Shown: positions 16,242 to 41,197 of the stretch, piece by piece | How positions within the stretch are numbered: the first letter of the stretch is position 1 | How the letters are laid out: each line of letters starts with the position of its first letter | NCBI GenBank assembly: GCA_025526995.1 | Contig: JAHLKG010000008.1 | Location: 744,001-808,000, forward strand | Reading direction: 5' to 3' | DNA: 64,000 nt | DNA from: Powellomyces hirtus | Lineage: Eukaryota > Chytridiomycota > Chytridiomycetes > Spizellomycetales > Powellomycetaceae | Position numbers and translations under genes: made by a program | Notes under the pieces: generated by a model | Database searches by the model: none | The model's input: only the letters and a program-made list of their open reading frames with translations | What the model was told of the DNA's origin: nothing

Positions 16242-16293
16242 TGTCGCAGGCCACTGATCCAACTCACGTGAGTTGGATCAGTGGCCTGCGACA
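16242..16293. repeat. perfect 52-bp terminal palindrome, left
   Basis: Two 26-bp arms, TGTCGCAGG... and ...CCTGCGACA, meet at a central CACGTG with no loop. The same palindrome ends the element at 41146-41197. Such a structure resembles a duplicated hairpin telomere. Confidence 0.95.
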
Positions 16294-16392
16294 GGTACAG
16301 TTGGATGGTTTGTGCCTATTTTGGGCACTGGTACATTTAGCACGGTTTGCCCAGGGTCATTGGTACATTTGCCATGGTTTGCCAATGAGAAG
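16294..16392 (+). repeat. subterminal GGTACA...GGTTTG repeats
   Basis: Three imperfect copies begin with GGTACA at 16294, 16330 and 16362, each followed about 10-15 nt later by GGTTTG. They sit directly inside the palindrome and are mirrored at the other end (about 41047-41145). Position suggests binding sites for the integrase or a terminal replication protein; this is inference. Confidence 0.7.
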
Positions 16393-17058
16393 GCACTTTT
16401 GGCGACCTAAGTACAAGTTCAGTTAACACTTTGCGACGTTTTGGAGCTGTGTGTACTCAAAGGTCACTTAGCTGCCGTGTGCTCCCTTTTGGCCTCCCTT
16501 CCACCGACGCGTCTGTCCTTGCCCAAGCCACACGTTGTCCGAAAGCCCGCGACTTTGATTACGTAAGCACCCTCTCTCATCTGTGCGTACTTTGCGCCAA
16601 AACAGCAAAACCCCCCTGGGAAAGAAGGGTTTATGCCCCAGCATCCAAACGGACACCAGTTGTATTCTTCTACTTAGACCAAGTAGAAGCGCTGAATTGT
16701 TTATAGCGCATCCCATAGCTTGATGTATGTGTCCTAAGTGAGCCGCTTGGCTCCTTGTCCTATTTGGCGCTTTAGCCTCCTCGCCCTTCCACTGTACTGA
16801 GGCTACCACCAGTTGCGACTTTGCTTAAATAGGATTCTATTCACACCTCTTCCGCCTATCGATAGCTTCCTGTCGTCGCTGATACACTTGTAGTTGAACA
16901 GCTGACCCCTTATCCCCTCCCGCCCCATCCATCCCCCTGTCTCATCCATTGCCTCCTCTAGACCCTGGGTACCTTGGGTTCCATTGACAAATGCCTCCAT
17001 GGCTCCATCGAGGTAACGCCTTATACCCATGTTCCATTTGTTTCCATTCATCGAAAGA

Positions 17059-17214
17059 AACCCAAGAAACCCAACCCAAATTCTATAAAAAACTTATATT
17101 GTAAATCGTATTTCATATTTTTTTGTTCACTCACAAGTTGTCAACTTCTTTTTTCCACTTTGCCTCTCTTCTGTCAAGATTAATATTCCTTTTGGGTACT
17201 GGGTTTCTTGGGTT
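17059..17214 (+). repeat. inverted-repeat unit A (left TIR copy)
   Basis: About 155 bp bounded by AACCCAAGAAACCCA and its inverse TGGGTTTCTTGGGTT, with an AT-rich core containing AAAAAACTTATATTG. Related units occur at 17496, 24783, 28853, 39788 and 40225. Confidence 0.8.
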
Positions 17215-17495
17215 GCCTCTCGATGCCCTCTCCATAAGCCTTCCCAACGTTACCCAACTTGACCCATTCCTCCATACTCTCCCTACATACCACTCCCTCT
17301 ACTGCTAATATGGGAGCCTTGTGCCCCACTCGATTCTAAGCTCTGCCTTTCACATCCTGGCCTCCGCATCCTCCCCTGTCCCTTTGAGATTCCCAGAGCT
17401 GCATATGTCTTGTTTTTTTCACGCGTTTTGGCTACCGGTGTGTCCAATGTCCAACGCATTCCTTCTTTCTCATAGCCACTCCTTTCTCGCTTACC

Positions 17496-17650
17496 AAACC
17501 CAGGAAACCCAACACAAATTTTATAAACTTCTTATACTAGGATTCCTTTTTTCAGAATTTTCTCTCTCACACGTGCTCAACTCTCTTTTCCACTCTTACC
17601 CGCCTGACTTGCAGCTTTCTTTGTCCCCTGGGTACTGGGTTTCCTGGGCT
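17496..17650 (+). repeat. inverted-repeat unit B (left TIR copy)
   Basis: A diverged copy bounded by AAACCCAGGAAACCCA and ACTGGGTTTCCTGGG, same length and layout as unit A. The core is different in sequence except for the AT-rich TATAAACTTCTTATA-like segment. Confidence 0.75.
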
Positions 17651-17812
17651 TACTCGAGGGGGGATTCTGTCCACCCCGCTCTTTCCCCTGTTTTCTCTTT
17701 TGCATTGATCGATCAAAATGGCCGACTTGGCACTGCTCACTGGTGGGACAGTCTCCTCCCATTACTCAGGGGGCAGCCCTGTCATGCCCAGGCAACCGGT
17801 AATCGCCAGGCA

Positions 17813-17820
17813 TATATAAC
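17813..17820 (+). promoter_or_regulatory. TATA box for the 87-residue ORF
   Basis: TATATAAC lies 36 nt before the ATG at 17856, just inside the left TIR boundary. Similar boxes precede the recombinase (18297) and polymerase (25387) genes. Confidence 0.55.
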
Positions 17821-17855
17821 AGGGTGCACCACTAACAACCCACCCACAAACCAAA

Positions 17856-18119
17856 ATGCTTCCAACAGAACTACTTTATCATGTCCACCGCTACTGTGAC
17901 CGTGATACAGGGCTTACTCTAGCTAAAGCCTGTGGTCTATACTTCTCCATTCGCCAAAGGGCAAACTCCTTGGCAGAAGAACCTTGGAAGAGGCGGCCCT
18001 TTCATCCCGCTATTGAGGCCAAATGGGAACTAGTGTTCAACGATCGTATTCGTATTCCCAACACGGACATAGATGAATACATAAGCAGGCGAATGGTACA
18101 TATTGCTATGGGGCGTTAG
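17856..18119 (+). CDS. small viral protein, 87 residues, unknown
   Basis: The first gene inside the left TIR. It starts at an ATG 36 nt after a TATA box and encodes MLPTELLYHVHRYCDRDTG..., with mixed helical composition, three cysteines and a basic RRPFHP stretch. The opening MLPTELLYHVHRYCD resembles the first helices of an F-box (LPxEll..i), which would suit an adaptor to host ubiquitin ligases; at this length the match is only suggestive. No other family is recognised. Confidence 0.6.
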   Translation: MLPTELLYHVHRYCDRDTGLTLAKACGLYFSIRQRANSLAEEPWKRRPFHPAIEAKWELVFNDRIRIPNTDIDEYISRRMVHIAMGR

Positions 18120-18351: not shown

Positions 18352-19365
18352 ATGGACCCTCAATTGAACTACAAATTCTTCTATGACATTATGCAGCGTG
18401 CGCACACTTCGCGAAAGTACCAGGATAGCACAAAGAAGAACGACTTCATTTACTTGCACGCTCAGAGGGATAACTTGCACCGTCTCCAAAGTGGAAAGGC
18501 CCTCATGAATCACCTCGAGAGTGTATATGGTAAAATCGATGCTCAATCCAACTACGCCAAAATGTACAGCAAAATCTGTAAAAATGCGACCATTGAAGAG
18601 AAGGCTATCATTCTTGGAGACACCTTACCAAAAGGTGCAGATGTTAAAACGTACTTTGACGAGCATGTGCATCGTTATTTCAAAGCGCACTCTAATGATC
18701 GCATGAAGGAGACGCACATCGAGGACGTTGACAGCCAGTTGATGAGTGACAAGAACCTCATCAACTATATTGACATGGACGACATGAAAGAGAAACTTTT
18801 GGAGAAACTGAAAACCCTTAACCGGAAGAACATTGTCGCCAACCAGATGATTGTTGCCTTTGCAATCCTGATCATGTCCAACAAGATCAGACGCCTGGAT
18901 GTAGCAATGATCAAATTCAGAAACATTCAAGAGAACGATAACGCCATCCTAAAGGACGACTGTAGCGGGTTCACCATCAAAGAGACCACCAAGACCAAGG
19001 TGAAGAACTGCCATATCGAGTTCAGCAAAATCATCGAGCCTTATGTGTGCATGTTGATGAAAGCACGACGCGCCCGGAAGGAAGACTACCTTTTCATGAA
19101 GGTACAGTCAAGGCAGGGGGTTGGAAAACAACCGGACACACACTGGTTTGGCAGGGAATTCAAGAAGAGGCTCTTCCAAATGTTTGATAAGAACGTGACG
19201 GTGAGCATGCTTCGAATTTCCATGGGAATCAAACTCTCTGAGAAGGACCGGGGAGATGTCAAGTACCAAAGGTACATTGAAAGTTTCATGGGGCACACCT
19301 ACGCTGTGCACCAGCGATACTACAATCTGTTCAAGTCCCTCCCGGGGCGCTTGGAGCAGGACTAA
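18352..19365 (+). CDS. tyrosine recombinase (phage-integrase fold)
   Basis: 337 residues from ATG 18352; the frame is open upstream but has no ATG. The C-terminal half has the order of a tyrosine recombinase: a first arginine region (SNKIRRLDVAMIKF), a second region with VSMLRISMG, and the closing box FMGHTYAVHQRYYNLF with the histidine and the nucleophile tyrosine. The usual HxxR appears as SMLR, so the histidine of that pair is replaced. Such enzymes are encoded by many PLVs and virophages and by Crypton elements, and act by site-specific strand exchange. Its stop overlaps the 3' end of the opposite-strand DDE integrase by 4 nt. The TSD argues that the DDE enzyme made this insertion, so this one may serve genome resolution or excision. 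Confidence 0.8.
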   Translation: MDPQLNYKFFYDIMQRAHTSRKYQDSTKKNDFIYLHAQRDNLHRLQSGKALMNHLESVYGKIDAQSNYAKMYSKICKNATIEEKAIILGDTLPKGADVKTYFDEHVHRYFKAHSNDRMKETHIEDVDSQLMSDKNLINYIDMDDMKEKLLEKLKTLNRKNIVANQMIVAFAILIMSNKIRRLDVAMIKFRNIQENDNAILKDDCSGFTIKETTKTKVKNCHIEFSKIIEPYVCMLMKARRARKEDYLFMKVQSRQGVGKQPDTHWFGREFKKRLFQMFDKNVTVSMLRISMGIKLSEKDRGDVKYQRYIESFMGHTYAVHQRYYNLFKSLPGRLEQD

Positions 19366-20726
19366 TCGGTGTGCAGGCTGTTATACTCTTCTACTAACTC
19401 TGGCGCAAGATCTATCAACTCCCTTTCCCCCCTCCATTCATCACTATCGCTATTATAGCCTAAATAACGGACCCTGTACTCTACCCTCCCCCTGTATCGT
19501 CGTTTACCTAAAATAAACTCAATCTCGTACTCTGCTTCTTCATCGTTGTTGGCGTTGCTTATTCTCAGTGACTTTCTCCGTTGTCTTACTTGTACTTGTT
19601 CAGAGTCTCCACGATTAACCAGCTCGTTGTGTACGAGAGTGTCATCTTGTGGTGCGTTTGAGTCTTCAATGTCTTCATCAGACAAGTCATCCAAGTCATC
19701 ATCGGCTTCTTCCATGTCCCTACTGAGGATGGGCGGGATCTCTAGCAGGTCCGTTCGCGCGTACCTTCCTTTAAGTACATCTCCATTCGCGTTGGCTAGC
19801 CTGTAGGAAGGGAGAAAGTTGGCATACGTCGAGTTAAGCCGTTGGACAACGGTTAGGATCTCCTTGTTCCAGTATCCAAGCAGGCCGGGTTTCTTGACTG
19901 ACGATTGGAGAACTCTACGCGCCCTCACCTGCTGTCCAACGTAAAGAGGGCGCATCATCTTTTTCGTCTTATAGCGCGAGGCAAGGTTGGACGCAATCTT
20001 CTCCTGCACTCTCTGCTGCATCTCATCGCCTGCGTTCTCCAAAGAGTTCGGGGTGACACCTGTAGCAAATGACTTTGAGTTGTTGATTGAATCTATAACT
20101 CCCTGGAAACGCGGCACCCACCTCTTGTCTCCGTGGAGCTCCATGAGCCTGTAGAGTGCTGCCTTGATGTCCCCTCCACGTCTTTCTATGAAGGAGTTTG
20201 CTTGTGGTCTTGCAGGTGCAGAGTAGGTATACTTAATCCCACGCTTGTCTAGGAGGGCCCTGTAGCGCGCTTGGAAGGTGCTCCCGTTATCTGATTGGAT
20301 AATTGTGACCTTCTTTCCTTCCTGTTGCATCTGATCCAACATGGACTCGATTGCGTCTACCGTTTCTTTCTCCTCTTCAGTGCGCAAAGGTCGCGCCCAT
20401 GACTTCTTGGTGAAGCCGTCTATAACATGGGAGAATGCTATGTAACCGCTGTCGGGATACGTCCGCATAGAGACATTATCTAACTGCAAGTAACCCGGCT
20501 TTGTGATCTGTAGGGGGGCAATAGTGGAGCGGTTAGAGTTGGGCTTGTTCTGGGTTTGCCAAGAGCTCTGGTTTTTCAACCAGTACAGTATGGCACGTCT
20601 GCTTCCTTTAAACTCTGGGTGCTTAGCGAGAACAGCGTCCCTTAAGCGATCTCTTCCAAACGGGTACGTTTCATAGACCTTCGAAACAAGTTCCTCTTCC
20701 TCCGGTGATAGTGGAACAAAAGACAT
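19362..20726 (-). CDS. RVE-family DDE integrase with C-terminal chromodomain
   Basis: 454 residues. The catalytic triad is clear: D83 (YLQLDNVS), D146 (IIQSDNGSTF) and E181 (NSFIERRGG), with 34 residues between D146 and E181 as in retroviral integrases. An N-terminal helical, zinc-free segment precedes it. An acidic linker at about 335-360 leads to a chromodomain (about 400-450: YRVRYLGYNSDSDEW). Polinton/Maverick elements and mavirus-type virophages carry this architecture; the chromodomain can steer insertion to marked nucleosomes. The enzyme joins 3' ends to staggered target cuts, in keeping with the 5-bp TSD and TG..CA ends here. All three catalytic residues are intact. Confidence 0.95.
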   Translation of the reverse strand: MSFVPLSPEEEELVSKVYETYPFGRDRLRDAVLAKHPEFKGSRRAILYWLKNQSSWQTQNKPNSNRSTIAPLQITKPGYLQLDNVSMRTYPDSGYIAFSHVIDGFTKKSWARPLRTEEEKETVDAIESMLDQMQQEGKKVTIIQSDNGSTFQARYRALLDKRGIKYTYSAPARPQANSFIERRGGDIKAALYRLMELHGDKRWVPRFQGVIDSINNSKSFATGVTPNSLENAGDEMQQRVQEKIASNLASRYKTKKMMRPLYVGQQVRARRVLQSSVKKPGLLGYWNKEILTVVQRLNSTYANFLPSYRLANANGDVLKGRYARTDLLEIPPILSRDMEEADDDLDDLSDEDIEDSNAPQDDTLVHNELVNRGDSEQVQVRQRRKSLRISNANNDEEAEYEIEFILGKRRYRGRVEYRVRYLGYNSDSDEWRGERELIDLAPELVEEYNSLHTD

Positions 20727-20761: not shown

Positions 20762-21472
20762 TTAAAAGTAGTCCTTGAAGCCATCCTTGTCGCAGTATCT
20801 ATACATGGTTTTGGCATCGTCGGCTGCGAGATTGATATAGCAGAAACTGTATGGCTCTGAAGTGCACTCGGTAAGATATGTGAGAACTTCCTTTCTGTTT
20901 TTAAAGGCTGACGTGAGCAGTCGCGCCAACGCCTCCATGTCTTCCGCGTTGTTTTTGAATATAATGAACTCCGTGGTATTGTTTTTCATCTTACGCGTCA
21001 AATGCCCGGATACGGACTGTATGCAAACCATGGAGGAAATCCCAAAATGTCTTCCACGTGTATACAACTTGGAAAGTTCTTTGTTCAGTTCTTTGCCTTG
21101 GGCATTATCTCCCGCATCATCAATCATCAAGAGAAGTGTTTTCCCATTGTTGGACAGTTCCTTTTGCTCCTCAAGAATCTCCTTTATAGACGCATTGGTC
21201 ACCTCGTCGGTGAAGTAGATGTTCTTATGTTTTGTTTTCTTGGCCAGTTCTTTGATTGACTTGTTGTACATGACTGTATCCGACATGATCACAACTTTGG
21301 AAAACACCTTGGCATACACGTCTTCGATCAACCCAGCTACCAAAGCGGACTTCCCGGATTTTCTTGGAGCGATAAGTGTGGTACATAGTGGCGGGTCTTG
21401 AATATCGAGCGGGATTCGAGGATCCCGTTGCCTTCTCTTAGTAGGAAAGATGGGCTTCGGCTTATACGACAT
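20762..21472 (-). CDS. FtsK/HerA-superfamily genome-packaging ATPase (A32-like)
   Basis: 236 residues. Walker A is LIAPRKSGKSALV (residues about 33-45), and Walker B is the hydrophobic LLLMIDDAGD. Downstream lie the sensor-like GISSMVCIQSV and a C-terminal helical segment. Length and motifs fit the A32/FtsK-HerA packaging ATPases of PLVs, virophages and adintoviruses, which pump DNA into preformed capsids. It lies downstream of nothing on its own strand except the integrase 35 nt away, and diverges from the capsid cluster. The gap of 36 nt to the divergent minor capsid gene implies a compact bidirectional promoter. Confidence 0.92.
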   Translation of the reverse strand: MSYKPKPIFPTKRRQRDPRIPLDIQDPPLCTTLIAPRKSGKSALVAGLIEDVYAKVFSKVVIMSDTVMYNKSIKELAKKTKHKNIYFTDEVTNASIKEILEEQKELSNNGKTLLLMIDDAGDNAQGKELNKELSKLYTRGRHFGISSMVCIQSVSGHLTRKMKNNTTEFIIFKNNAEDMEALARLLTSAFKNRKEVLTYLTECTSEPYSFCYINLAADDAKTMYRYCDKDGFKDYF

Positions 21473-21508: not shown

Positions 21509-22234
21509 ATGTACGGCGAGTTCCTTTACTCATCTCTGAAGCAACGTGTCTACAACATCCAACCTAGGCGGGTGGAGGCGTTCAAGATCCTCTCCGTCTC
21601 GTTCCTGCAAGACTGGGATCTGGTAGAAAACGGGGTGAACAATAAGATTGCCTTTGCCGAACAAGGAAGTGACACTGTTCTATACGCAACCATCCCCAAC
21701 GGTAACTACTCGATCGTGAACTTTGGGGACGCAATCGCCTCCGCCTTGACTGCAGCCTCGGGGGCGGGCAACACCTATGAAGTGACATATAGCCCAGTAA
21801 GCCGACGACTGACAGTTTCTACAAGTGGGGTTGATTTCAAGATTCTCGAAGGATATCGCGGCACCACAGCCTATGTATTGACTGGGATGAGTAGCAGGTA
21901 CGAGACGGGATATGGAAAGAGTCTTACCTTGAAGAATCCTGTTAACCTTAGCGGGAGTTACCCGGTCCTGCTGACGTCCAACATCTCCGTAAAGGGGCAA
22001 GTGTATCTCACTGACTACACCGACGCTGCGCAATCTATTGTTGCCTCCATGACACCAGATAGTTTCGGAGACATTGTTACTTGGACGAACAATGGAGGCG
22101 AATATCTCCCGGTTGAAGAAACGGTCTCTCGAATAGAATTCCACCTTGTTAACAGTCTCACAGGAACAGAGGTTTCCTTAAATAGCCCGTTATCTGTGCG
22201 TTTTGCCATTCTAGACGATAAAAGCGATGTGTAA
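21509..22234 (+). CDS. candidate minor capsid (penton) protein, single jelly-roll type
   Basis: 241 residues from ATG 21509. It is rich in beta-prone segments and Gly/Ser/Thr, with YATIPNGNYSIVNFGDAIA near the N-terminus, a pattern common in PLV and virophage penton proteins in which a short N-terminal sandwich precedes a jelly roll. It sits directly before the major capsid gene, the order usual for these viruses, and is close to the packaging ATPase. The assignment rests on size, composition, the NYS motif and synteny, not on a strict signature. Confidence 0.75.
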   Translation: MYGEFLYSSLKQRVYNIQPRRVEAFKILSVSFLQDWDLVENGVNNKIAFAEQGSDTVLYATIPNGNYSIVNFGDAIASALTAASGAGNTYEVTYSPVSRRLTVSTSGVDFKILEGYRGTTAYVLTGMSSRYETGYGKSLTLKNPVNLSGSYPVLLTSNISVKGQVYLTDYTDAAQSIVASMTPDSFGDIVTWTNNGGEYLPVEETVSRIEFHLVNSLTGTEVSLNSPLSVRFAILDDKSDV

Positions 22235-22263: not shown

Positions 22264-22791
22264 ATGAGCCAAGAAGATCCCAAATTGCAACATGAAGAAT
22301 CGAGTGCCGATGGGGAACCTACCGAGGAATCCCAACCGGTGCAAGATACCGACCAACAGCCTGAACAAGAACAGGTACGAGAGCCAGAGGTAGCTCCGGC
22401 ACCACTCAAAAAGCCCCGCTCCCCCGGCCAAATCGCAGCCATGAAGAAGGCCACCGAGGCACGAGCCAAGAACCTCCGGGAGATGCAGGCCCGGAAGAAG
22501 AAGGAGGATGCTGTTCTAGAAAAGCAACGCAAGATCGACAAGGCCAAACGCATTCTTGAAAAGGAGAAGGAGGAACGCAGGATTAAGCGCGAGGCACGAA
22601 AGAAGGCGTTGGAAGAAAAGCAAAAAGCCAAACCTGTACCCAAAGCGCAACCTAAACCCAAAGCGCAACCTAAACCCAAGGCAAAGACCGCCGCTCCATC
22701 GCCTGCTCCTGCCACCAATCCATACACAACCTTTGTAGAATTCGATCAGTCAGAGAGTTCAGATGATGACTATGGAGGCATATTCGGATAG
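22264..22791 (+). CDS. charged Lys/Glu-rich coiled-coil protein of the capsid cluster
   Basis: 175 residues. An acidic, Gln/Pro-rich N-terminus is followed by a long uninterrupted charged helix (about 50-120, Lys/Arg/Glu heptads), then a tandem KPKAQPKPKA segment and an acidic tail ending FDQSESSDDDYGGIFG. Placed between the minor and major capsid genes with 29 and 36 nt spacing, it is likely co-expressed with them and could be a scaffold, a genome-condensing protein or a capsid cement. No family is recognised. Confidence 0.7.
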   Translation: MSQEDPKLQHEESSADGEPTEESQPVQDTDQQPEQEQVREPEVAPAPLKKPRSPGQIAAMKKATEARAKNLREMQARKKKEDAVLEKQRKIDKAKRILEKEKEERRIKREARKKALEEKQKAKPVPKAQPKPKAQPKPKAKTAAPSPAPATNPYTTFVEFDQSESSDDDYGGIFG

Positions 22792-22827: not shown

Positions 22828-24078
22828 ATGTCTCAAGTAGCATCAATTCCTCGCAACTGGATCTATTCCTCCAACACGTGGGCAAAACCTTTCAGTGATG
22901 CTCGAGGTGAAGGACTTGCTGTATATAGCCCAGTAGGTCAAAGTGAATATTCAACGAAAAGCCGTAACCTTACACCAATCAAGATTACATGTGATTCCAA
23001 CTCTGTCAGTTTCCTACTGCAGAAACTTATTTTGTCCATGGATATCACTGCCGTCAATGATGGAGTACCTGTCAGTGGGGCAGGTTTGGTTAACACCAAA
23101 CTTGGAATGGAATCGATCATCCAAAGCCTTACCATCAAAGCAGGGGGCGAGGTCATGGCCAAGATCGACTCATACCCCGCATACCTTGCCCAAACTTACC
23201 GCAGTTTGAACAAGGGCTACAAGCAACTTCTCCAGAACATGAGTCGGTATGGGACCAGCAACGTCTTCTCTGGAACCCATACCGCATCGGTGTCGTTTCA
23301 TCCAATGGTAGGTGCACTCCACGCTAGCAATGGCCAAAGTTTCCCCACGTGGGCATTGCCAAACCAGGCCTTGACCATCGAAATCGTACTCGCAGACCCG
23401 TCCACAGTTTTTACCAGTGGGAATGTGAACGAGATCCGAGTATCCAATATCCGTTGTCTTGTTCCATACATTACGCCCCCTCCCAGCGTCGTCTTCAATG
23501 TCACGCGTGCGATCGCAGATGGCAAGAGTATCTTTTGGGACTACGTACGTAGCACTCAAACCGAGAACCCATGCAGTGGAGGCCAAAAGAACACCTTCAA
23601 TCTACATATGTCAGGCGTAAGGTCGTTGGTTGGAATAGAATGTTCCTTTGTCGATGATGATGTTCTCTCTGATCCCACCAAAGACAAGTCCGAGATGTTC
23701 TCTTCGCAGAATCTAAGGTCTTGGAGACTCCAACTCGGGCCCAATGCTACGATTCCATCGGGTACGACTGGTATAACTCATAGTCCTTACGATAGGCAGA
23801 CGCTGTTGGTGTCTCAATTGTCCAACAACGACTTTGAGCAAATGGCGGACCTGGACATAAATTTCGCAGACTACGACCAAAAACAGTTCTCCTTCAGTTA
23901 CGGTTTCCAATCAAAGGACGAGGGCTCCACCGCGGCCCTATCCTTCACCGGGACCGATGCAATCCTGAAAATTCACACGGAACATGCCAGTCCCCCTCCA
24001 TCCCAAAAAGTGCGTTTGTTGACTAGTTACCACGAGAATGTCACATTGTCCATTGGAGGGCTAGTTACCGTTTTGTAA
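22828..24078 (+). CDS. major capsid protein, double jelly-roll type (candidate)
   Basis: 416 residues. The N-terminus MSQVASIPRNWIYSSNTWAK is followed by a beta-rich chain with repeated strand-loop patterns. These include LILSMDITAVNDG, SIIQSLTIKAGGEV, a long loop region (SYPAYLAQTYRSLNKGY), then LTIEIVLADPSTVF and a second set of strands ending HENVTLSIGGLVTVL. Size and layout fit the shorter double-jelly-roll MCPs of Polinton-like viruses, which form trimeric hexons. Position after the candidate penton and near the ATPase supports it. A structure prediction would settle the fold. Confidence 0.83.
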   Translation: MSQVASIPRNWIYSSNTWAKPFSDARGEGLAVYSPVGQSEYSTKSRNLTPIKITCDSNSVSFLLQKLILSMDITAVNDGVPVSGAGLVNTKLGMESIIQSLTIKAGGEVMAKIDSYPAYLAQTYRSLNKGYKQLLQNMSRYGTSNVFSGTHTASVSFHPMVGALHASNGQSFPTWALPNQALTIEIVLADPSTVFTSGNVNEIRVSNIRCLVPYITPPPSVVFNVTRAIADGKSIFWDYVRSTQTENPCSGGQKNTFNLHMSGVRSLVGIECSFVDDDVLSDPTKDKSEMFSSQNLRSWRLQLGPNATIPSGTTGITHSPYDRQTLLVSQLSNNDFEQMADLDINFADYDQKQFSFSYGFQSKDEGSTAALSFTGTDAILKIHTEHASPPPSQKVRLLTSYHENVTLSIGGLVTVL

Positions 24079-29005: not shown

Positions 29006-29010
29006 CTGGC

Positions 29011-29352: not shown

Positions 29353-29363
29353 AGTGTAAAGAG

Positions 29364-31017: not shown

Positions 31018-34000
31018 ATGTCAGGCCTAAATAGCAGAACATCCTCAGGCCTCAGGAACCTTGAAGACACCAACCTCATTAGTCCCGTTGTCTCGGGCAA
31101 CATGAAGGCATTCACTGCCAATAGCAAGATTACTGGATTCCAAAAGGTCGCTGCAGATACCATAGAGAACAAGCACGGTCCTTTGTTGGTTAACGATGTT
31201 ACATCCTCGGATCCAATCACTGTTACCAAAGAAGGGGAGGGCGTTGTGTCCCTGGGATTGGAGATTGACGACAAGTACCTATCGATAGATGAGGGTGCCC
31301 TGAACTACAAGCCGGATGTGTACGAGTTTCCTTTAACCCATGAATTAGAATCCAAAACTGTTGAACTAATCACTGCCGCACCATTCGCAGTTACAGAAGA
31401 AGGCCTCTCCCTGTTCCATGACGCCTCGTTGGAGATCAAGGAAGACGGAGATCTCTCGGTTGTAAAGGAAACATTACAAGCCCCTTTGGCCAGAGACGCC
31501 AACGGGATCAAACTGGTGCTTGACGAATCACTAAAGGTCCAACATGGAATGCTGGGACTGGATTACTCTGATCCATTGTTTATTGATTCTGAAAGTAAGT
31601 TAACACTCAATCACGATTCAACACTGCAGGTGAATGCCGAAGGGCAGCTCTCGGTTGTTTGTGAAACCTTGACGGAGCCAATCGTGCGGGGGGAGGATGG
31701 GTCGATTACTTTCAATTACGGCCGAGGCCTGAAACTGGAGGACGGAGAACTGGTGAGTAACACTGAGGATGTGCTGAAGCCCTTGGGGGCGCTTCACAAC
31801 GGCGGAATCTTTGACATGGGAATGGATGAATTGACCGAGTTGGGCTACGACGCATTGGCAGACCTTACAGATGAAGTACCTGATACAGACATCACTTTGC
31901 TGCGTTTGCGCACGAGTGATGACTTTACTCAGAAGAACACACTTGCATCGTTTGGAGGCAAGGCCCTGGCTATCAAGTCCAAAGGAAACAATAAGATTCC
32001 ATTCTACGGGGTCTTTGACGGGTTTAATGTTTCTAGTCGGCTGGAATACAATGACACGCTCTCTGAGCTGTCCGTCCCGCATGTAGAACTTAGTCAGAAT
32101 TTCAATCCCAATTCAAACGAGGCTGTAACGCAGTCATATGTAGCGCAGTATATTCAAAGTGGCTCGGCTATTGATGTAGCACCAGAAACCAATAATAGAC
32201 GGCTTCTCAATGTTCGCACTGATGCAACTTTACAAGTTGATGCCAACAACAATCTGTGTGTTAACGTTTCTCCTTTGGTTAATGGGTCATCTGTTAAGAT
32301 CGACGGGAATGGTAAGATAAGCGGTGGCTACATTTTCCAATCGGCAAATGGAGTGCGGCTTCGAGAGGGCACCAACAACGATGTCGTTTTGGCGCTTAAT
32401 GTCGAAGGGGCACTAGAGAAGGTCGGACTCAACACAATCAAGGAGAACATGACCTTTGAAAGTGGATTAAAAAGAACAGGGAACAGCGTGGCACTCGATT
32501 TACAAGGGAGCGAACACATCCAAGTGCAGGGAAACACCGTTTCGACAACGTTGAAGCCATACACCGCCGGCCAAAATGTTACAATCAGCAACAACACCAT
32601 CTCTGTAAACATTCCTGAAGAACAGGACTACAGCGCAGGAGCTGGTTTGAGCCTGATGGGCCGTACCTTTATCAATGATCTACGAATCAGCGCGGGGATG
32701 GGGATAACCGTAATGGGTAGCGCAGCTACCGGGTACATAATCTCAAGCCAAAATCTCAAGACCCAGGACGATGATGATGACGAGAAAAAGACTGATAACG
32801 AAGATGACACACTGAAAAACGAAAACAATGAAGTCGTGCAGTCGACAAGTCCTACAAGTCTAATCTTTCCGATACCGCTGATCCCAATCCCCCCGATCCC
32901 GCCCATTCTGCTGGTGCCGATCTTTCCTATTATTGGCGTCCTGCCTTCTCTACTTGGTTTCCTAGGAGGGTTTGCTGTAATATTTGGGTACCAGCGGGAA
33001 CGCAAGAAGAAGAAGAATCCGGACGGTACTGATCAAGTTGACGAGAATGGAAATCCAATCTACAATCTCGATGATGATGGAAACTACATCTGGTCCGAAG
33101 GATCCAATGTTGTTATTCACTCAGACAAGGATACTAGACGCACAACATTGATGTTCGACTCCTGGCCAGAGGACGTAAGGGTTGGGAGGTGGTGCTATGG
33201 AATGAACTTGGAAAAGACTTGGGAGTTTGAAGAGAAGATATCGAGGCCTTGGACCATTGAGACCGTTAGTTCTCTCGTTCAACCATTGGACACGCGTTTG
33301 CTCATTGCTGAGTCATCAGTCGCCAACCACGGCGGGCGACTCTATGGGGCAGAAATCGCTCTGGATGCTGTGGAAGCCAAAGTGTCTATTTTGGAAAGTA
33401 ACAGCCCAATAACCGTTGGGAAAGGACTGGTCAAGAACAGCAACATTATCTCAATTAACCCGTACCAATCAGAGACACTCTCTGCCATTGGTGACGTTAT
33501 TTTTGGGATGCAACGTCTATTCCCCTCCACGGTGTTCTTCAACGATAGTGAACCCTCGACAACCACCGTGGTCGGAGAAGCGTGGGGAAATGGAACGTAC
33601 ACAATTAGTAGTAGTCATACTGACAACGTTAACCGCTCACATAAGGCCTAATCATTCTATGGAGCGAGTTTGTGGTTTACCAATGTATACACGACTGCAG
33701 GTGTATCGAGTAGAACAACTGAAACCACAGCGGCGGGAGTTTCGTACAAGGGAGAATGGATTCAGATCCAGCTCCCCGCAGCCAAAAGCATCTCAGCCAC
33801 GAGACTTAGGTATCGCGACGGGGGCAACATTCTTGGGATGCCCCAGACCTTTGCAATCTTAGGTTCGACCGATGGGGCAACCTGGAATCTGTTGTATCAC
33901 CAGTCTACACCCGTCGGATGGAGCGATTCCAACCGTGATCCGAAATGGTTTACCTCGACGAACACTACAGCATACAATTTTCTCAGGTTCGTATGTCTCA

Positions 34001-37000
34001 CCAATGGAGGCAATTATGCATATTGTGGAGTCAGATTGGAGTTTTTCACTCCACTTGATTCCGTTACAATTAACAAACCTCTGTTTATTGGTAACGGTCT
34101 CACAGGATCCAATGCAACCTTTTCAAAGACAATAACTGCCGAGGCAGCTCCTACAATTGGAGCTCATCTTGTGAACAAGACCTTCACGGATGCTACGTAT
34201 GCAACCATTACAGCCTTGGGGGGGACTAACACTAATCTGACATCGCTTACAGCCAGGGTTACAAGTGCAGAAACCTCATTAACTGGGAAACAGGGGACAC
34301 TCAGTGTTTCTTCAGGTATCACTCTTTCCAACAATGTCCTTGGATACGACTCGGCTATAATCTCTACAAAGGCTTCAACTGACGCTTTGGCCACTAGAGT
34401 TACCAATGCTGAATCGTCTTTAGCGGGGAAGCAGGGGTTGCTCAGTGTCTCTTCAGGTATCACTCTTTCCAATAATGTTCTTGGCTATGATTCGGCTATA
34501 ATCTCTACAAAGGCTTCAACCGATGCTTTGGCCACTAGAGTTACCAATACTGAATCGTCCATAACAACACTCCAAACCGGGAAGCAAAACGCGCTCTCGG
34601 TCGCTGCAGGGATTACTTTAACCAATAGCGTTCTTGGCTATGATTCGGCCATCATAGCAACCAAAAGTTCAGTTGATGCTCTCGCGACATCGAAGCAGGA
34701 TGTGCTAACCGCTGGGACTGGACTTACCAAAACCGGAGCGACGCTATCAGTCAATGCTTCTCAGCCGCAGATAACTTCAGTTGGAACACTTACATCACTA
34801 GCGGTCAATGGCTACATCAATATAACCAACACTGGAAGCGTAGCGCTGTCTATAGCAGATAATGTATCCTTTGGACGATGCGGGTCTAACACGCAGTGGT
34901 TTTCAAACGCACAAACCGGAGATGCAATCATTCGAGCATCAGGCTCAAAAGTCATTAGGCTAGGGACAAATACAAATGCTTCAATCGTTGATATTTTCGA
35001 TGGAGGTATGGTTCTCAACAGTGGAAACCTTACGGTAGCCACTGCGCCGACTCTAGGTAACCATCTTGTAAACAAAACATATGTTGATGGATCATTTGCC
35101 TCCATAGGATCCTTGACTACTACAAACACTAATGTCACGAACCTCACGGGTCGAGTGGTCTCTCTGGAAAGCGGGGGTTCAACAAATAAAGAAATTACCG
35201 TCTGGAGTAAAATCAAGGGCAGTGATACAGTCCCCGTCCCTCTTCCTCCAGCAGGGGGAGCTGCCCTTACGGCAGGAACCTCTACTCCAACAACGTGGGA
35301 ATACTTGAATGGAACTTATACTTTAACGGCTTCAAGTATCTACTCGGCTGGATATGAAGCCTACAGAGGTTTCAAATCGGAACGGTTAACCGCTCCATGG
35401 GTCTCTGGAAACGGTACTTATAACTCGACAACTGGTGTATATACTACTTCAACAGCCTCTTGGATTGACTCAAATAGTACGTTCGTACCGGGCGAATGGA
35501 TTGCCGTAGATCTCCCCGCTGCTCGAACAGTTTCTGCAGTAACAATTTACCAAAGGCTTGGCGAACCTTCTCCATCAATGCCCTTGAGAATAGCGGTGCT
35601 AGTTGGACAATCAACCGGGACCATGACAGTGGCGGTCGACCAAGATAATATACCAGACGTCCCAAGTCATACGCTAAACTTTACCGCAGGCTCCTACAAG
35701 TACATAAGACTTGTGTGTCTCAGAACAAGAACACCTTTTACCTTCTGTCACTTTTCCTTTAGTCTCACAACAACCACCGCCGGGTTCCCCCTGGCCCTCG
35801 ATCACTCTGCAGTAAAGATTGCTTCCACTGAGGAGTCTACCTCTTCCACAACCGGTGCCCTCCAGGTAGCTGGAGGTGTTGGAATCGGTAAAAACTTGTT
35901 TGTAGGAAATGTCAACAATGTCGTGAAGAACGTTACAGCGGAAACCGGAGCCTTGCTTGCTGCATTTGGAACAACTACTGCACAGAGAATCCAATTCTAT
36001 GATGGGGACGCGGCAACTCTAGGTGCTCGCATTCACATGAATACTGGTAACGCATGTAGTATCACCACAGCAGGAAGTTCGCTAAATCTAAGTCCAGTTG
36101 TTTCAGTTGTAATAACGCCAACAGGAGAGTCCACCTCTTCCACAACCGGTGCCCTCCAGGTAGCTGGAGGCCTAAGCGTTCAGAAATCAATCAACATCGG
36201 AACAGGAACAATTCCCTGCGGAATAACGACTGAGGTCGGGGGGTCTACTCCTCTCATCAATGTTGGAGTTAACTTCCGCCACACCCCCGTTACGACAAGT
36301 GGAGCGGCTGCCCTCCGCATTGATGGAAGGGGGGTTGGGGCCAACGGTACACCTTTTTACTTTTTCACTCGACTGGCTGGTCAAAGCGAAATAGCAGTAG
36401 CAACCATAGACATGACTGGTAAATTGGCGCTTAATGGCGGGTTGTTGAATCTTACAAACACTGCTTCAACCGGAAATTTGATTCATTTCTCTTCGGCTGG
36501 AGTTCAAGCGCCGACATTTTCAACTCGGTCGACTGGAACCAAAATCGTCCTCTATCCACAAATTGCTGCAGACTATGTCGATTATGTGGTGGGGATGGAA
36601 GGGGGACACATATGGAATTCAGTGCCTAATACAAATAACACTTTAGGGTTCAAGTGGTATGGGGGCACTACTCAAATCGCTCGATTGGATGCAGTGGGGA
36701 ATCTTAGTCTCAATGGCTCCGTGGATTCAAAGGTACCAACATTTTTTATCGTCGACAACACCCAAATTACTACCTACCAGAATCTACCAGCCAACGTTGT
36801 AACCAAAATTCAAATGGTCACTACAACTAGATACAACAAAGGAGTTCAATCTGGTTGGAGGAACGGGACCTATGACTACGTTATACCAAAAACTGGTCTT
36901 TGGCAATTCCACGTTTCGATTGGATTGACCAACTTTATAGGGAATAACAATATAATGTTCTCCATCGACGTGAATGGAGAACTACCTCCAGACCGTATCT

Positions 37001-37188
37001 CCACTCAAGCAACCATTAATGCGCAGTTTCCAAACCAGTATTCCACCGTGCAAGGCACATTTCATTTGCTACTGAACGCGAATGATATAATTTCGTTAAA
37101 GTTCAACCCTACAATCGCTTGCTACACCGCTGGGTTGGATTGGAACTGCATATCGAAATTATCTGGTCAACTGATAGCAGCCTCTTAG
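31018..37188 (+). CDS. giant adenovirus-like fibre gene, interrupted by one in-frame TAA
   Basis: One reading frame of 2,057 codons is broken only by TAA at 33649-33651. Before it (877 codons): beta-spiral shaft-like repeats of the form LTLxxDSTLQVxxEGQLSVV (about 90-240 and again 400-590), an acidic patch, a Pro/Ile-rich hydrophobic segment (about 615-658) and the first strands of a discoidin-like domain. After it: the rest of that domain (GEWIQIQLPAAKSISATRL), three repeats of about 50 residues (LSVxxGITLxNxVLGYDSAII), a second discoidin-like domain (GEWIAVDLPAARTVSAVTI), two ESTSSTTGALQVAGG repeats known from phage and giant-virus fibres, and a C-terminal C1q/TNF-like head (about 36740-37188). 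No ATG follows the stop until about 33838, within the domain, so the second half is not a separate gene. Role: receptor attachment spike. Confidence 0.85.
33649..33651 (+). other. in-frame TAA splitting the fibre
   Basis: The codons before (AAC CGC TCA CAT AAG GCC) and after (TCA TTC TAT GGA GCG) keep the same frame. The stop falls inside the first discoidin-like domain; the second, intact copy at about 35230-35790 shows that residues on both sides belong together. Confidence 0.9.
34285..34710 (+). repeat. three tandem repeats in the fibre
   Basis: Copies begin near 34285, 34426 and 34580 (spacing 141 and about 153 nt), each encoding GKQxxLSVxxGITLxNxVLG followed by YDSAIIxTKxSxDALAT. Copies one and two are almost identical at DNA level, a sign of recent duplication. 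Confidence 0.85.
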
Positions 37189-37526
37189 TACTTCTCGTTG
37201 ATGTACGTGATCTCCAAATAATCATGGATCGTTAACTCTTTGCATTGATACCTAGCGAACACAAGGAGCTTCCGCCTTTCGCCGTCCTCTGTCTCCAAGT
37301 TTTGGAATGCTATGAATCCTTTACGGTTCTTCCAAAGCATCTTGCTTTTGTGCACGCTTTTGAACGAGCTACACAAAAGCAATTTGTGAAAGAGACCTCT
37401 ATTCTCGATAGTGGGCCTTACAATCCACATTGTATCCTCGCCATGAATTTCTCGGTACTCTACTGCAATCTTTACGAACTCGGCTTCCGTGTTACAGTCA
37501 ATTGTACGCGCGTTTGGCGGATTCAT
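37185..37526 (-). CDS. small viral protein, 113 residues, unknown
   Basis: From ATG 37526. Contains WIVRPTIENRGLFHKLLLC and a basic SVHKSKMLWKNRKGFIAF stretch, with alternating strands and helices of a small globular protein. It overlaps the fibre stop by 4 nt tail to tail, like other convergent pairs in the element. No family is recognised. Confidence 0.65.
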   Translation of the reverse strand: MNPPNARTIDCNTEAEFVKIAVEYREIHGEDTMWIVRPTIENRGLFHKLLLCSSFKSVHKSKMLWKNRKGFIAFQNLETEDGERRKLLVFARYQCKELTIHDYLEITYINEKY

Positions 37527-38560: not shown

Positions 38561-38908
38561 ATGTACTTTAACCGAGAGACATCTACATTTAAAGACAAGG
38601 CTTCTGTGGACGCTATTGTTAAAACTTTTGAAGACGACCCAGTGTTCTCCATTGTCCCTGAAAATGTCAGGAGGGAGATCCTAGATGCCTTCTACAAGGA
38701 CTTGGCAGAGAACCGCGTCGAAGAACTACTCCGCAAATCCAAGCCAAAGACTCCAAGGAAACGAAAGGCCGCCCCAAAGAAGGAGGATGAAGACTCCAAA
38801 AAGAAGGCAGCCCCAAAGAAGTCGTTTGATGTCCGCCGTGCAGCAACGAGGGAGAAGACAGAAGAGCCTGTTGCTGTCTTTGGCGACCAAACAGAAGACA
38901 AGGAATGA
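38561..38908 (+). CDS. small Lys-rich protein, 115 residues
   Basis: An ordered N-terminal half (FKDKASVDAIVKTFEDDPVF, then VRREILDAFYKDLAENRVE) is followed by a basic tail with repeated PKTPRKRKAAPKK and KKKAAPKKS, resembling linker-histone tails. Probably binds DNA; it may condense the genome. Starts 67 nt after the response regulator on the same strand. Confidence 0.65.
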   Translation: MYFNRETSTFKDKASVDAIVKTFEDDPVFSIVPENVRREILDAFYKDLAENRVEELLRKSKPKTPRKRKAAPKKEDEDSKKKAAPKKSFDVRRAATREKTEEPVAVFGDQTEDKE

Positions 38909-38962: not shown

Positions 38963-39376
38963 CTAGTGGAGAATCTTAATATCTTTAATAGGGTGACGGC
39001 ACAGGGGGCAGAACATGTCATCAAAGGCATCTAGTTCAAGCATGCATTTTCCGCATGTATGGTGACCACAAGCTAAGACGACAATGGTAAGTTGCTCATA
39101 TGTTTCGAAACATACAGGACAGTCCAACTCAGGTTTCTCCAATGATTGACTTTGTGCGATTTGTTGCACTCGAAGCCTGCCGAGCTGTTCTTCCAAATGC
39201 TCCGCGTTGCGTTGCTCGAGTTGTGCATCCTCTTCCAAGCGAGACGTGAGCCTGGCCAGACGGAGTCGATAGTGGCGGGCAAGTACTCGATAGTGTAGTC
39301 TTGCGCCCGACACGGTGAGCCTTTGAAGGGCAGCCTCTGCGAGCGGTGCAAATTGACGGTTGCGTTGAGCTGGCAT
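38963..39376 (-). CDS. RING-finger protein (putative E3 ubiquitin ligase)
   Basis: 137 residues from ATG 39376. An Arg/Leu-rich helical N-terminus (heptads, coiled coil about 25-75) leads to a C3HC4 RING near the C-terminus: LDCPVCFETYEQL, then LACGHHTCGKC, then MFCPLCRHP. RING proteins recruit ubiquitin-charged E2 enzymes. Viruses use them to remove host defence factors, but the target here is unknown. The frame stays open upstream to 39538 without an ATG through a repeat tract, so the shorter start is preferred. Confidence 0.85.
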   Translation of the reverse strand: MPAQRNRQFAPLAEAALQRLTVSGARLHYRVLARHYRLRLARLTSRLEEDAQLEQRNAEHLEEQLGRLRVQQIAQSQSLEKPELDCPVCFETYEQLTIVVLACGHHTCGKCMLELDAFDDMFCPLCRHPIKDIKILH

Positions 39377-39500
39377 TGTGTGACTGAGGAATTGGTTGGT
39401 GACTTGAGCTGATGGTTGGTGACTTGAGGAATTGGTTGGTGACTGCGCTGATGGTTGGTGATTGAGGAATTGGTTGTTGCCCGAGGAATTGGTTGGAGGG
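39377..39500 (-). repeat. tandem repeat upstream of the RING gene
   Basis: GAATTGGTTGGTGACT and GATGGTTGGTGACT units of about 20-30 nt alternate over some 100 nt, directly before the RING start codon. Read on the minus strand they would encode NQFLxHQPSAQ repeats, but there is no ATG. May be a promoter or leader array. Confidence 0.6.
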
Positions 39501-39604
39501 CAGTTTTGGCCTGCATTTTTCCGTTGGCTTTTATCCAAAAAAATTTCCCACTTCTATCGACAGAAAACCGCGCTTTTGGCGATTACCGGTTGCCTGGCCA
39601 TGAG

Positions 39605-39700
39605 TGTCCCACCAGTCGGGTTGCGCGGGAAGAGACAGTACGTCACTGTCCCACCTGTCGGCTTGCGCGGGAGGAGACAGTAGGTGACTGTCCCACCAGT
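39605..39700 (+). repeat. 42-bp tandem repeat at the inner edge of the right TIR
   Basis: About 2.3 copies with period 42, each starting TGTCCCACC and containing TTGCGCGGGA and GAGACAGTA. The left TIR has a single collapsed copy at the matching place, so the arms differ by a repeat expansion or loss here. Confidence 0.8.
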
Positions 39701-39787
39701 GAGCAGTGCCAAGTCGGCCATTTTGATCGATCAATGCAAAAGAGAAAACAGGGGAAAGAGCGGGGTGGACAGAATCCCCCCTCGAGT

Positions 39788-39943
39788 AAGCCCAGGAAAC
39801 CCAGTACCCAGGGGACAAAGAAAGCTGCAAGTCAGGCGGGTAAGAGTGGAAAAGAGAGTTGAGCACGTGTGAGAGAGAAAATTCTGAAAAAAGGAATCCT
39901 AGTATAAGAAGTTTATAAAATTTGTGTTGGGTTTCCTGGGTTT
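39788..39943 (-). repeat. inverted-repeat unit B (right TIR copy)
   Basis: Mirror of the unit at 17496-17650. Confidence 0.75.
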
Positions 39944-40224
39944 GGTAAGCGAGAAAGGAGTGGCTATGAGAAAGAAGGAATGCGTTGGACATTGGACACA
40001 CCGGTAGCCAAAACGCGTGAAAAAAACAAGACATATGCAGCTCTGAGAATCTCAAAGGGACAGGGGAGGATGCGGAGGCCAGGATGTGAAAGGCAGAGCT
40101 TAGAATCGAGTGGGGCACAAGGCTCCCATATTAGCAGTAGAGGGAGTGGTATGTAGGGAGAGTATGGAGGAATGGGTCAAGTTGGGTAACGTTGGGAAGG
40201 CTTATGGAGAGGGCATCGAGAGGC

Positions 40225-40381
40225 AACCCAAGAAACCCAGTACCCAAAAGGAATATTAATCTTGACAGAAGAGAGGCAAAGTGGAAAAAAGAAGTTGACA
40301 ACTTGTGAGTGAACAAAAAAATATGAAATACGATTTACAATATAAGTTTTTTATAGAATTTGGGTTGGGTTTCTTGGGTTT
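40225..40381 (-). repeat. inverted-repeat unit A (right TIR copy)
   Basis: Mirror of the unit at 17059-17214. Confidence 0.8.
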
Positions 40382-41145
40382 CTTTCGATGAATGGAAACA
40401 AATGGAACATGGGTATAAGGCGTTACCTCGATGGAGCCATGGAGGCATTTGTCAATGGAACCCAAGGTACCCAGGGTCTAGAGGAGGCAATGGATGAGAC
40501 AGGGGGATGGATGGGGCGGGAGGGGATAAGGGGTCAGCTGTTCAACTACAAGTGTATCAGCGACGACAGGAAGCTATCGATAGGCGGAAGAGGTGTGAAT
40601 AGAATCCTATTTAAGCAAAGTCGCAACTGGTGGTAGCCTCAGTACAGTGGAAGGGCGAGGAGGCTAAAGCGCCAAATAGGACAAGGAGCCAAGCGGCTCA
40701 CTTAGGACACATACATCAAGCTATGGGATGCGCTATAAACAATTCAGCGCTTCTACTTGGTCTAAGTAGAAGAATACAACTGGTGTCCGTTTGGATGCTG
40801 GGGCATAAACCCTTCTTTCCCAGGGGGGTTTTGCTGTTTTGGCGCAAAGTACGCACAGATGAGAGAGGGTGCTTACGTAATCAAAGTCGCGGGCTTTCGG
40901 ACAACGTGTGGCTTGGGCAAGGACAGACGCGTCGGTGGAAGGGAGGCCAAAAGGGAGCACACGGCAGCTAAGTGACCTTTAAGTACACACAGCTCCAAAA
41001 CGTCGCAAAGTGTTAACTGAACTTGTACTTAGGTCGCCAAAAGTGCCTTCTCATTGGCAAACCATGGCAAATGTACCAATGACCCTGGGCAAACCGTGCT
41101 AAATGTACCAGTGCCCAAAATAGGCACAAACCATCCAACTGTACC

Positions 41146-41197
41146 TGTCGCAGGCCACTGATCCAACTCACGTGAGTTGGATCAGTGGCCTGCGACA
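41146..41197. repeat. perfect 52-bp terminal palindrome, right
   Basis: Identical to 16242-16293. Its outermost bases are CA, followed directly by the TSD. Confidence 0.95.

What the first reader, a model, noticed from the sequence alone, without database searches (positions are those of the whole stretch)
16242..41197. Complete Polinton-like virus integrated in a chytrid-type genome
A 25-kb element with a full viral gene set, exact TSD, TG..CA ends and near-identical TIRs. Most published PLVs come from algae, protists or metagenomes; an intact copy with a giant fibre and signalling genes in a fungal host would be new or little described. The intactness of the integrase triad, ATPase and helicase motifs suggests recent activity.
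Basis: partly seen in the sequence, partly recalled or inferred. Interest (0 to 1): 0.95.

Follow-up and report, generated by a model that had tools for sequence, protein, structure and literature searches.

The report
Chytrid Polinton-like virus with palindromic ends
A 25-kb virus is stitched into what looks like a gene of a soil chytrid fungus, and its two ends are perfect 52-letter DNA palindromes, as are nearly all known ends of its sister copies, which suggests that its free genome is capped by hairpins.

Summary
In detail: 16242-41197 is an integrated Polinton-like virus (PLV), 24,956 bp, with 1,516-bp TIRs (3 mismatches), TG..CA ends and a 5-bp TSD. Rejoined flanks give an 833-codon open frame, so it is no misjoin. 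Host: Powellomyces hirtus. PLVs in chytrids are known (Spizellomyces punctatus group, 2021; six Powellomyces "MELD virus" taxa).

In this genome all 15 known ends of at least eight sister elements, this one included, are 52-54-bp palindromes (14 perfect, one with a single change), in five different sequences, always followed inward by GGT. Elsewhere in the 260 kb held, no gapless palindrome arm exceeds 9 bp. The five copies complete on one contig have 5-bp TSDs and no recognised protein-primed polymerase. Seven of seven with the region held carry, besides the rve integrase, an ORF that by eye resembles a tyrosine recombinase. A plain-ended PLV in this genome (C26) has, by eye, a protein-primed-type polymerase-helicase.

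Best reading: a hairpin-ended linear genome, with the recombinase-like protein as candidate telomere resolvase. Structure prediction was off; hairpins are inferred, not shown.

The parts
16237..16241 (.). target-site duplication TCGGA, left copy
16242..17757 (+). left terminal inverted repeat, 1,516 bp
   Evidence: 3 mismatches to the right repeat
16242..16293 (.). left terminal palindrome, 52 bp, perfect (axis CAC|GTG), proposed opened hairpin telomere
   Evidence: I4; 16242-16300 as single-stranded DNA folds at -31.5 kcal/mol, z -11.2
16294..16296 (+). GGT next to the palindrome, the same at all 15 known ends; proposed nick or resolution boundary
18352..19365 (+). tyrosine-recombinase-like protein, 337 aa; candidate telomere resolvase
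   Evidence: motifs read by eye (R..TKTK..SMLR..GH..Y); no recombinase family in Pfam or NCBIfam
19362..20726 (-). rve (DDE) integrase with C-terminal chromodomain
   Evidence: rve 4.4e-11, Chromo 8.3e-9
20762..21472 (-). packaging-ATPase-like protein
   Evidence: Walker A by eye; alignment A5; no packaging family in Pfam
21509..22234 (+). minor capsid (penton) candidate
   Evidence: alignment A6; no Pfam hit
22264..22791 (+). basic protein, 175 aa, conserved in sister elements
22828..24078 (+). major capsid (hexon) candidate, 416 aa
25467..27068 (+). replication protein whose C-terminal half resembles the N-terminal part of DUF5906 helicase fusions
27088..28782 (+). D5_N / superfamily 3-type helicase
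   Evidence: D5_N 1.3e-13; primase_Cterm 7.2e-17 (below NCBIfam cut-off)
29011..29370 (-). small conserved protein, 119 aa
29364..30920 (+). conserved protein, 518 aa
31018..33651 (+). adenovirus-fibre-like protein
   Evidence: Av_adeno_fibre 2.2e-7
33838..37188 (+). large fibre-like protein with F5/8 type C domain
   Evidence: 1.2e-9
37185..37526 (-). conserved protein, 113 aa
37810..38493 (+). response regulator receiver protein
   Evidence: 6.4e-17
38561..38908 (+). conserved basic protein, 115 aa
38963..39376 (-). RING finger protein
   Evidence: 3.8e-9
39682..41197 (-). right terminal inverted repeat
41146..41197 (.). right terminal palindrome, 52 bp, perfect
   Evidence: I5
41198..41202 (.). 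target-site duplication TCGGA, right copy

Best explanation
This is an integrated PLV of the Spizellomyces punctatus group in Powellomyces hirtus. Its free linear genome probably ends in terminal hairpins: each end is half of the palindrome, folded back on itself. Before integration the hairpin is opened at the palindrome-GGT boundary and copied, which regenerates a full perfect palindrome with a 3' CA end; the virus's own rve integrase then joins that end to host DNA with a 5-bp stagger. The second recombinase-like protein (tyrosine-recombinase type) is not needed for that integration and is the best candidate for forming or resolving the hairpin ends. The hairpins stand in for the protein-primed polymerase that classical Polintons use to copy their ends and that this lineage appears to lack. 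Shown: palindromes, TSDs, integration, co-occurrence. Inferred: the hairpin, its opening, and the recombinase's role.
For: 15 of 15 known ends of the family in this genome carry the palindrome (14 perfect, one with a single change), while the longest other gapless palindrome arm in the 260,614 bp examined (window plus fetched stretches, much of it element DNA) is 9 bp. Five different palindromes (6-18 of 26-27 arm positions differ between types) are each perfect, so both arms change together, as copying through a hairpin predicts. All 15 are followed inward by GGT; a genome-wide pattern finds 14 of the 15 ends and one other place, against 2 matches of the reversed control. TSDs are 5 bp in 5 of 5 elements complete on one contig; two more, split over contigs, I paired by their flanking 5-mers (CCCCC in a C run, GCGTC), so they are no independent proof. 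A recombinase-like ORF, by eye, is present in 7 of 7 elements whose region is held. Replication modules differ (D5_N helicase with separate or fused partner; Prim-Pol; Herpes_ori_bp) and none is protein-primed as far as recognised. The plain-ended PLV C26 has a 274-bp TIR, a 6-bp TSD, no palindrome, no recombinase-like ORF that I recognised, and a polymerase-helicase with, by eye, the altered motif described for pPolB-S1H fusions (passages of PMC11071308). In other hosts, too, PLVs with a tyrosine recombinase tend to have a primase-helicase and the others pPolB: the two such elements among 13 in a cryptomonad (passages of PMC12747079) and five oomycete elements (passages of PMC7805220). Phaeoviruses offer a precedent for palindrome plus telomere resolvase (passages of PMC13236599).
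Against: No free viral DNA or fold-back read was seen. Recombinase identity rests on motifs read by eye: Pfam Phage_integrase is only 0.02 (below cut-off) for the C13 and C50 proteins and absent for the window's, C3, C30a and C30b proteins; that family finds nothing in the whole genome; profile comparison with Cre, lambda Int and TelN is not significant; and a search with the C30b protein finds the C13 and C50 ones but not those of C8, C25, C3 or C30a, so a common origin of the seven is not shown. Published PLV papers read such recombinases as integrases, so here it could be a second or left-over integrase. The absence of pPolB is weak evidence: DNA_pol_B_2 has no hit over cut-off anywhere in the genome, and it also misses C26, which I read as pPolB-derived. 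The palindromic elements share one capsid lineage, so the link with replicase type is not independent, and C26 is a single contrast. Phage protelomerase sites show only marginal resemblance (best 57 of 2,000 shuffles, uncorrected).
Confidence: 0.55

Rival explanations
1. The genome ends are hairpins, but they are opened and copied by a parvovirus-like self-priming (rolling-hairpin) cycle with a nick at ACC|T, by a host or helicase-associated nuclease; the recombinase-like protein does something else, such as resolving dimers or serving as a second integrase.
For: The same palindrome evidence; the invariant GGT boundary is what a fixed nick site would leave; recombinase identity is weak; published PLV papers read such recombinases as integrases (passages).
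Against: No Rep-type or other nickase was recognised by eye among the ORFs read (Pfam was run on only part of them); a recombinase-like ORF is present in 7 of 7 elements.
Confidence: 0.27
2. The palindrome is a two-sided protein-binding or recombination site (for the recombinase, the integrase or an origin), kept symmetric by selection on an open-ended linear or circular genome; no hairpins exist.
For: The outer arm (T[AG]T[CG][AG]CAG) is similar between types, as a binding site would be; dimeric enzymes favour symmetric sites.
Against: The inner arm differs almost completely between most types yet stays perfect; that natural protein sites seldom need 26 exact pairs is recalled, not tested. 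The C8 and C3 arms differ at 9 of 26 positions, all mirrored.
Confidence: 0.15
3. Assembly or library artefact: fold-back chimeras or a viral contig misjoined to host DNA.
For: Inverted duplications are a known long-read artefact (recalled).
Against: Five insertions at different places with matching 5-bp TSDs on one contig each; an 833-codon frame restored across the empty site; palindromes only at element ends.
Confidence: 0.02

Closest known systems
Spizellomyces punctatus group of Polinton-like viruses (Bellas and Sommaruga 2021, PMC7805220; passages read)
   Same: Chytrid host of the same order; capsid protein 66% identical to Spizellomyces punctatus SPPG_02195; integrated. That SPPG_02195 is the element of that paper was not checked.
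   Different: No palindromic or hairpin ends are mentioned in its main text (0 occurrences of either word); I could not fetch those elements to look.
Powellomyces chytrid fungus MELD viruses 1-6 (NCBI taxa)
   Same: MELD virus 5 hexon is 66% identical to the window's capsid.
   Different: Names and one protein only; I found no paper describing them and could not see the records, so whether one of them is this very element is unknown.
Phaeovirus endogenous elements with telomere resolvase and telRL-like palindrome (PMC13236599; passages read)
   Same: Eukaryotic dsDNA provirus, palindromic site, proposed telomere resolvase, separate integration enzyme.
   Different: Giant virus; the palindrome is internal and a circular form is part of the proposed cycle; integration is ascribed to a tyrosine recombinase, not to an rve integrase.
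Phage N15 and PY54 telomeres
   Same: Palindromes of 56 and 42 bp beside a protelomerase gene.
   Different: N15 site has mismatches; no detectable homology to TelN (the PY54 protein was not compared); the N15 prophage is a linear plasmid, not integrated (passages).
Polintons/Mavericks and pPolB-S1H PLVs (C26 in this genome, by my reading)
   Same: rve integrase, TIRs, ATPase, capsid genes.
   Different: Protein-primed polymerase; 6-bp TSD and no palindrome at C26.

Membership tests
Polinton-like virus (S. punctatus group) | Double-jelly-roll major capsid protein | tested here: inconclusive
   Capsid_N 0.011, below cut-off; homologue named hexon; no PDB profile match; fold not predicted, tool off
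Polinton-like virus (S. punctatus group) | Minor capsid protein and packaging ATPase beside the capsid gene | tested here: met
   Homologues lie together in C8, C25, C3, C30a, C30b, C13, C50 and align with C26; functions named by eye
Polinton-like virus (S. punctatus group) | Capsid related to one of Spizellomyces punctatus | tested here: met
   66% identity over 100% of the query (P0005)
Polinton-like virus (S. punctatus group) | TIRs, integration, 14-40 kb | tested here: met
   size range from the abstract of PMC12220804
[quoted passage not shown]
   No such ORF recognised in the element; no DNA_pol_B_2 hit over cut-off in the genome, though that model also misses C26
Telomere resolvase (protelomerase) | Sequence homology to known resolvases | tested here: not met
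   No such Pfam or NCBIfam family; hhalign with TelN not significant
Telomere resolvase (protelomerase) | Tyrosine-recombinase catalytic residues R, K, R, H, Y | tested here: inconclusive
   Read by eye in alignment A4; Phage_integrase 0.02 in C13 and C50 only
Hairpin-ended linear virus | Covalently closed ends in free DNA | not testable with these tools
   No raw reads or free viral DNA available
Hairpin-ended linear virus | Terminal palindrome in the duplex (replicated) form | tested here: met
   15 of 15 ends, 14 perfect

The most novel reading that the evidence does not exclude
A whole lineage of fungal PLVs has traded protein-primed replication for hairpin telomeres: a tyrosine-recombinase relative works as a telomere resolvase on self-copying terminal palindromes, while a retroviral-type integrase inserts the opened ends. 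The recombinases seen in other PLVs and assumed to be integrases may likewise be end-processing enzymes.
Probability: 0.3. Interest if true: 0.82.

Novelty: new variant of a known kind. Interest (0 to 1): 0.62.

Why it matters
Many PLVs lack a protein-primed polymerase, and how they copy the ends of a linear genome is open to my knowledge. Terminal palindromes that stay perfect while their sequence changes point to a direct, checkable answer, and would explain why one element carries two unrelated 'integrases'. It also gives a simple rule to test across published PLVs: plain ends with a protein-primed polymerase, palindromic ends without.

Tried and rejected
Tried without result: relatives in IMG/VR with the capsid, ATPase, C26 capsid, part of the C30a recombinase, C13-type recombinase and C30a helicase (no relatives; these scans start from short conserved peptides). 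The replication protein at 25467 found one 20.6-kb contig, L054, with no palindrome arm of 12 bp or more in the 12,428 bases held. Capsid against phage records: none. PDB searches with the capsid and recombinase profiles: none; the single recombinase gave only chance-level hits. PHROGs: nothing useful. Protein search with the 337-aa recombinase found only itself. Phage_integrase family in the host genome: none. Rfam: one tRNA.

Considered and rejected: misjoined contig; palindromes as chance or artefact; classical Polinton (with the limit stated there). The outer-arm likeness to the PY54 site (ACCTAT..CAG) is marginal and was noticed after the fact, so I do not build on it. The mirrored-arm check is a restatement of perfect symmetry, not an extra test. 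In some searches a script picked the wrong record for the window; the C8 repeat figures come and the empty-site result. On re-checking I lowered the novel reading from 0.33 to 0.30, because one search does not link the recombinase-like proteins of the two groups and one search also misses C26, and I no longer count the two split elements as TSD evidence.

Papers: PMC7805220, PMC10120064, PMC11071308, PMC12747079, PMC12220804, PMC4642659, PMC11071296, PMC13236599, PMC12085832 and PMC11814242 were seen as passages only. Two likely relevant papers, PMC11426020 and PMC8502044, are not held. That I found no description of palindromic PLV ends rests on searches of an open-licence library, on listings and on passages.
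Full report
What is there. The window is bases 744001-808000 of contig C8 of a 29.26-Mb genome in 60 contigs. The element 16242-41197 is 24,956 bp long, with TIRs of 1,516 bp that differ at 3 positions, TG..CA ends and a 5-bp TSD, TCGGA. When the two flanks are joined with one TSD copy, a frame of 833 codons runs open, stop to stop, across the junction on the - strand; the junction is at codon 141 and the first Met at 227, so the start would lie in another exon. By my estimate 141 further open codons in the right frame would arise by chance about once in 900 trials. The insertion therefore very probably broke a gene, and the flanks belong together. Of this frame only the 606-aa ORF was scanned, without a Pfam hit.

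Host. Of 22 proteins related to the capsid, the named ones come from Powellomyces hirtus, Spizellomyces, Phlyctochytrium and Gaertneriomyces, apart from one named after a Powellomyces MELD virus; a few are unnamed. One P. hirtus hit lies on a contig of 323,471 bases, the length of this genome's C30. The host is taken to be Powellomyces hirtus, order Spizellomycetales. I tried twice to read its ribosomal RNA; the tool did not complete.

Genes. From left to right: a tyrosine-recombinase-like protein; an rve integrase with chromodomain; an ATPase; a minor capsid candidate; a major capsid candidate; a replication protein; a D5_N helicase; several conserved proteins; two fibre-like proteins of 877 and 1,116 aa, the first with an adenovirus-fibre match (2.2e-7); a response regulator; and a RING protein. 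The replication protein at 25467 resembles the N-terminal part of DUF5906 helicase fusions of other chytrids and of one metagenomic virus contig. Names for the ATPase and minor capsid rest on motifs and gene order, not on Pfam.

Sister copies. The capsid search finds seven loci in the genome, C8, C25, C50, C13, C3 and two on C30; C11 and C19 add element ends. That makes at least eight elements of this lineage, the window's included. Five are complete on one contig (C8, C25, C3, C30a, C30b). Flanking 5-mers suggest that C13 and C50 share one element (CCCCC, in a run of C) and C50 and C19 another (GCGTC); that pairing is inference. The copies differ in state: in C25 the ATPase, minor capsid and integrase matches fall into 2, 4 and 4 pieces, and the C3 integrase match holds two stop codons by the tool's count, one of which may be its end. 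Between copies with open frames, amino-acid-changing differences are rare against silent ones (capsid pN 0.115-0.159, pS 0.709-0.735 for C13, C3 and C30b), which means long purifying selection. The copies are mosaics: the C8 and C3 response regulators are almost identical with no silent change, while their capsid genes are near saturation.

The ends. The main finding is at the ends. Each end of the window's element is a perfect 52-bp palindrome. All 15 known ends of the lineage carry one: five types, 52 or 54 bp long, 14 of 15 perfect and one (C3 right) with a single changed base. In the 260,614 bp of this genome that I held (the window and the 24 fetched stretches, much of it element DNA), gapless perfect palindromes have arms of at most 9 bp except at those 15 ends, where the arms are 22-29 bp (22 is the changed C3 end, and arms beyond the nominal 26-27 are chance matches of flanking bases). 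The outer arm is similar between types, the inner arm mostly not: C8 and C3 differ at 9 of 26 arm positions, C8 and C30b at 18 of 26, C13 and C30b at 6 of 27. Yet symmetry is kept. Every palindrome is followed inward by GGT. A pattern for the inner boundary matches 15 places in the genome: 14 of the 15 ends and one other place on C2; the reversed control pattern matches 2. As single-stranded DNA the left end folds at -31.5 kcal/mol, z -11.2.

A contrasting element. C26:286214-307191 is another PLV in the same genome: 20,978 bp, TIR 274 bp, TSD GTCGCT (6 bp), and no palindrome with an arm of 11 bp or more at spacers 0-4, 6 or 8 in the pieces held. Its ATPase and minor capsid are about 30% identical to the window's. 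It has an rve integrase and a large protein with a RecD-like helicase towards its C-terminal end and, by eye, polymerase motifs B and C with K-T-D in place of D-T-D. A change of the first Asp of that motif is described for the pPolB-S1H 'Tlr1-like helicases' of PLVs (passages of PMC11071308). Pfam shows no polymerase there, so this assignment is mine.

How it probably works. A linear genome needs a way to copy its ends. Polintons use a protein-primed polymerase. In the palindromic elements I recognise none, though the family search that shows this also misses C26 and so is not strong. Their replication genes are of three other kinds: D5_N helicase with a separate (C8, C25) or fused (C3) partner, Prim-Pol with DUF5906 (C30b, and a fragment by eye at the end of C50), and a Herpes_ori_bp-like protein (C30a). 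A hairpin end solves the problem and explains why the two arms change together: one arm is copied from the other each time the hairpin is opened. If it is opened at the ACC|T boundary, copying yields a duplex that ends in a full palindrome, in the window's element with 3' CA, the end that rve-type integrases usually join (recalled), and a 5-bp stagger gives the observed TSD. Types C13 and C30 end in TA rather than CA, which fits that part less neatly. This chain is inference.

Two recombinases. Each of the seven elements whose region is held carries, besides the rve integrase, an ORF that looks to me like a tyrosine recombinase. The TSDs point to rve-type chemistry for integration, so the second enzyme is free for another task, and telomere resolvases are relatives of tyrosine recombinases. 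In a cryptomonad and in oomycetes, too, the recombinase goes with a primase-helicase and not with pPolB (passages of PMC12747079 and PMC7805220), but those authors, like others, take it for the integrase. I therefore treat 'hairpin ends' as likely and 'this protein makes them' as a candidate.

What is known. A PLV in Spizellomyces punctatus and a group of 27 related viruses, proposed as fungal dsDNA viruses, were reported in 2021 (PMC7805220, passages), and Powellomyces MELD virus taxa exist. A large survey of protist genomes left fungi out (PMC10120064, passages). Three PLV papers whose main text I searched hold neither 'palindrom' nor 'hairpin', and the one hairpin mention of PMC11071308 is a reference title. 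Of the ten papers that hold both 'polinton-like virus' and 'hairpin' I looked into four; none of the passages shown speaks of PLV ends. Telomere resolvase with a telRL-like palindrome is proposed for phaeoviruses, which are giant viruses (PMC13236599, passages). So the element belongs to a known kind, and its ends make it a new variant as far as these searches go.

Noticed in passing
24742-25005; 17056-17120; 28943-29007; 39881-39945; 40319-40383: A 264-bp stretch between the capsid and replication genes is an 83% copy of part of the TIR, and a motif like AACCCAAGAAACCCA recurs in TIRs and between genes; it may be a shared promoter or regulatory element.
   Followed up: no
37810-38493; C30:91243-91626 in L037: Response regulator with the usual acidic and lysine positions by eye; near-identical in C8, C25, C11 and C3, while 11 other matches in the genome are only 25-38% identical. 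C30a carries a different receiver-like ORF (by eye). Possible interference with host phosphorelay.
   Followed up: partly
L040:5149-7221 (C30b); similar ORFs in C13 and C50 (by eye): ORF combining a Dam-like stretch (4.9e-5, below cut-off) and a C5 cytosine methyltransferase (DNA_methylase 3.1e-36).
   Followed up: no
L039:2983-4050 (C30a): Papain-like protease with a possible carbohydrate-binding module (Peptidase_C1 4.9e-11; CBM_5_12 1.9e-5, just under cut-off); could help passage of the fungal wall.
   Followed up: no
C26:286214-307191 (L046, L044, L048, L049): A second, distantly related PLV with plain ends whose fibre-like ORF resembles that of the window's element (48% in one stretch), although its capsid is not found by the window's capsid; fibre genes may be exchanged between PLVs. 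A retroelement polyprotein-like ORF (by eye) lies just outside its left end.
   Followed up: partly
C13 end, C50, C19 end, C11 start: Several contigs of this assembly stop inside these elements; C50 may bridge C13 and C19 through two insertions 2.9 kb apart.
   Followed up: partly
14164-16239 and 41204-41626: The interrupted frame, 833 codons across the rejoined site, has no Pfam match in its 606-aa ORF; the rest was not scanned.
   Followed up: partly
C13, C50, C19, C30a, C30b ends: Two end classes exist in one family: TG..CA (C8, C25, C11, C3) and TA..TA (C13, C50, C19, C30a, C30b), both with GGT inside.
   Followed up: no
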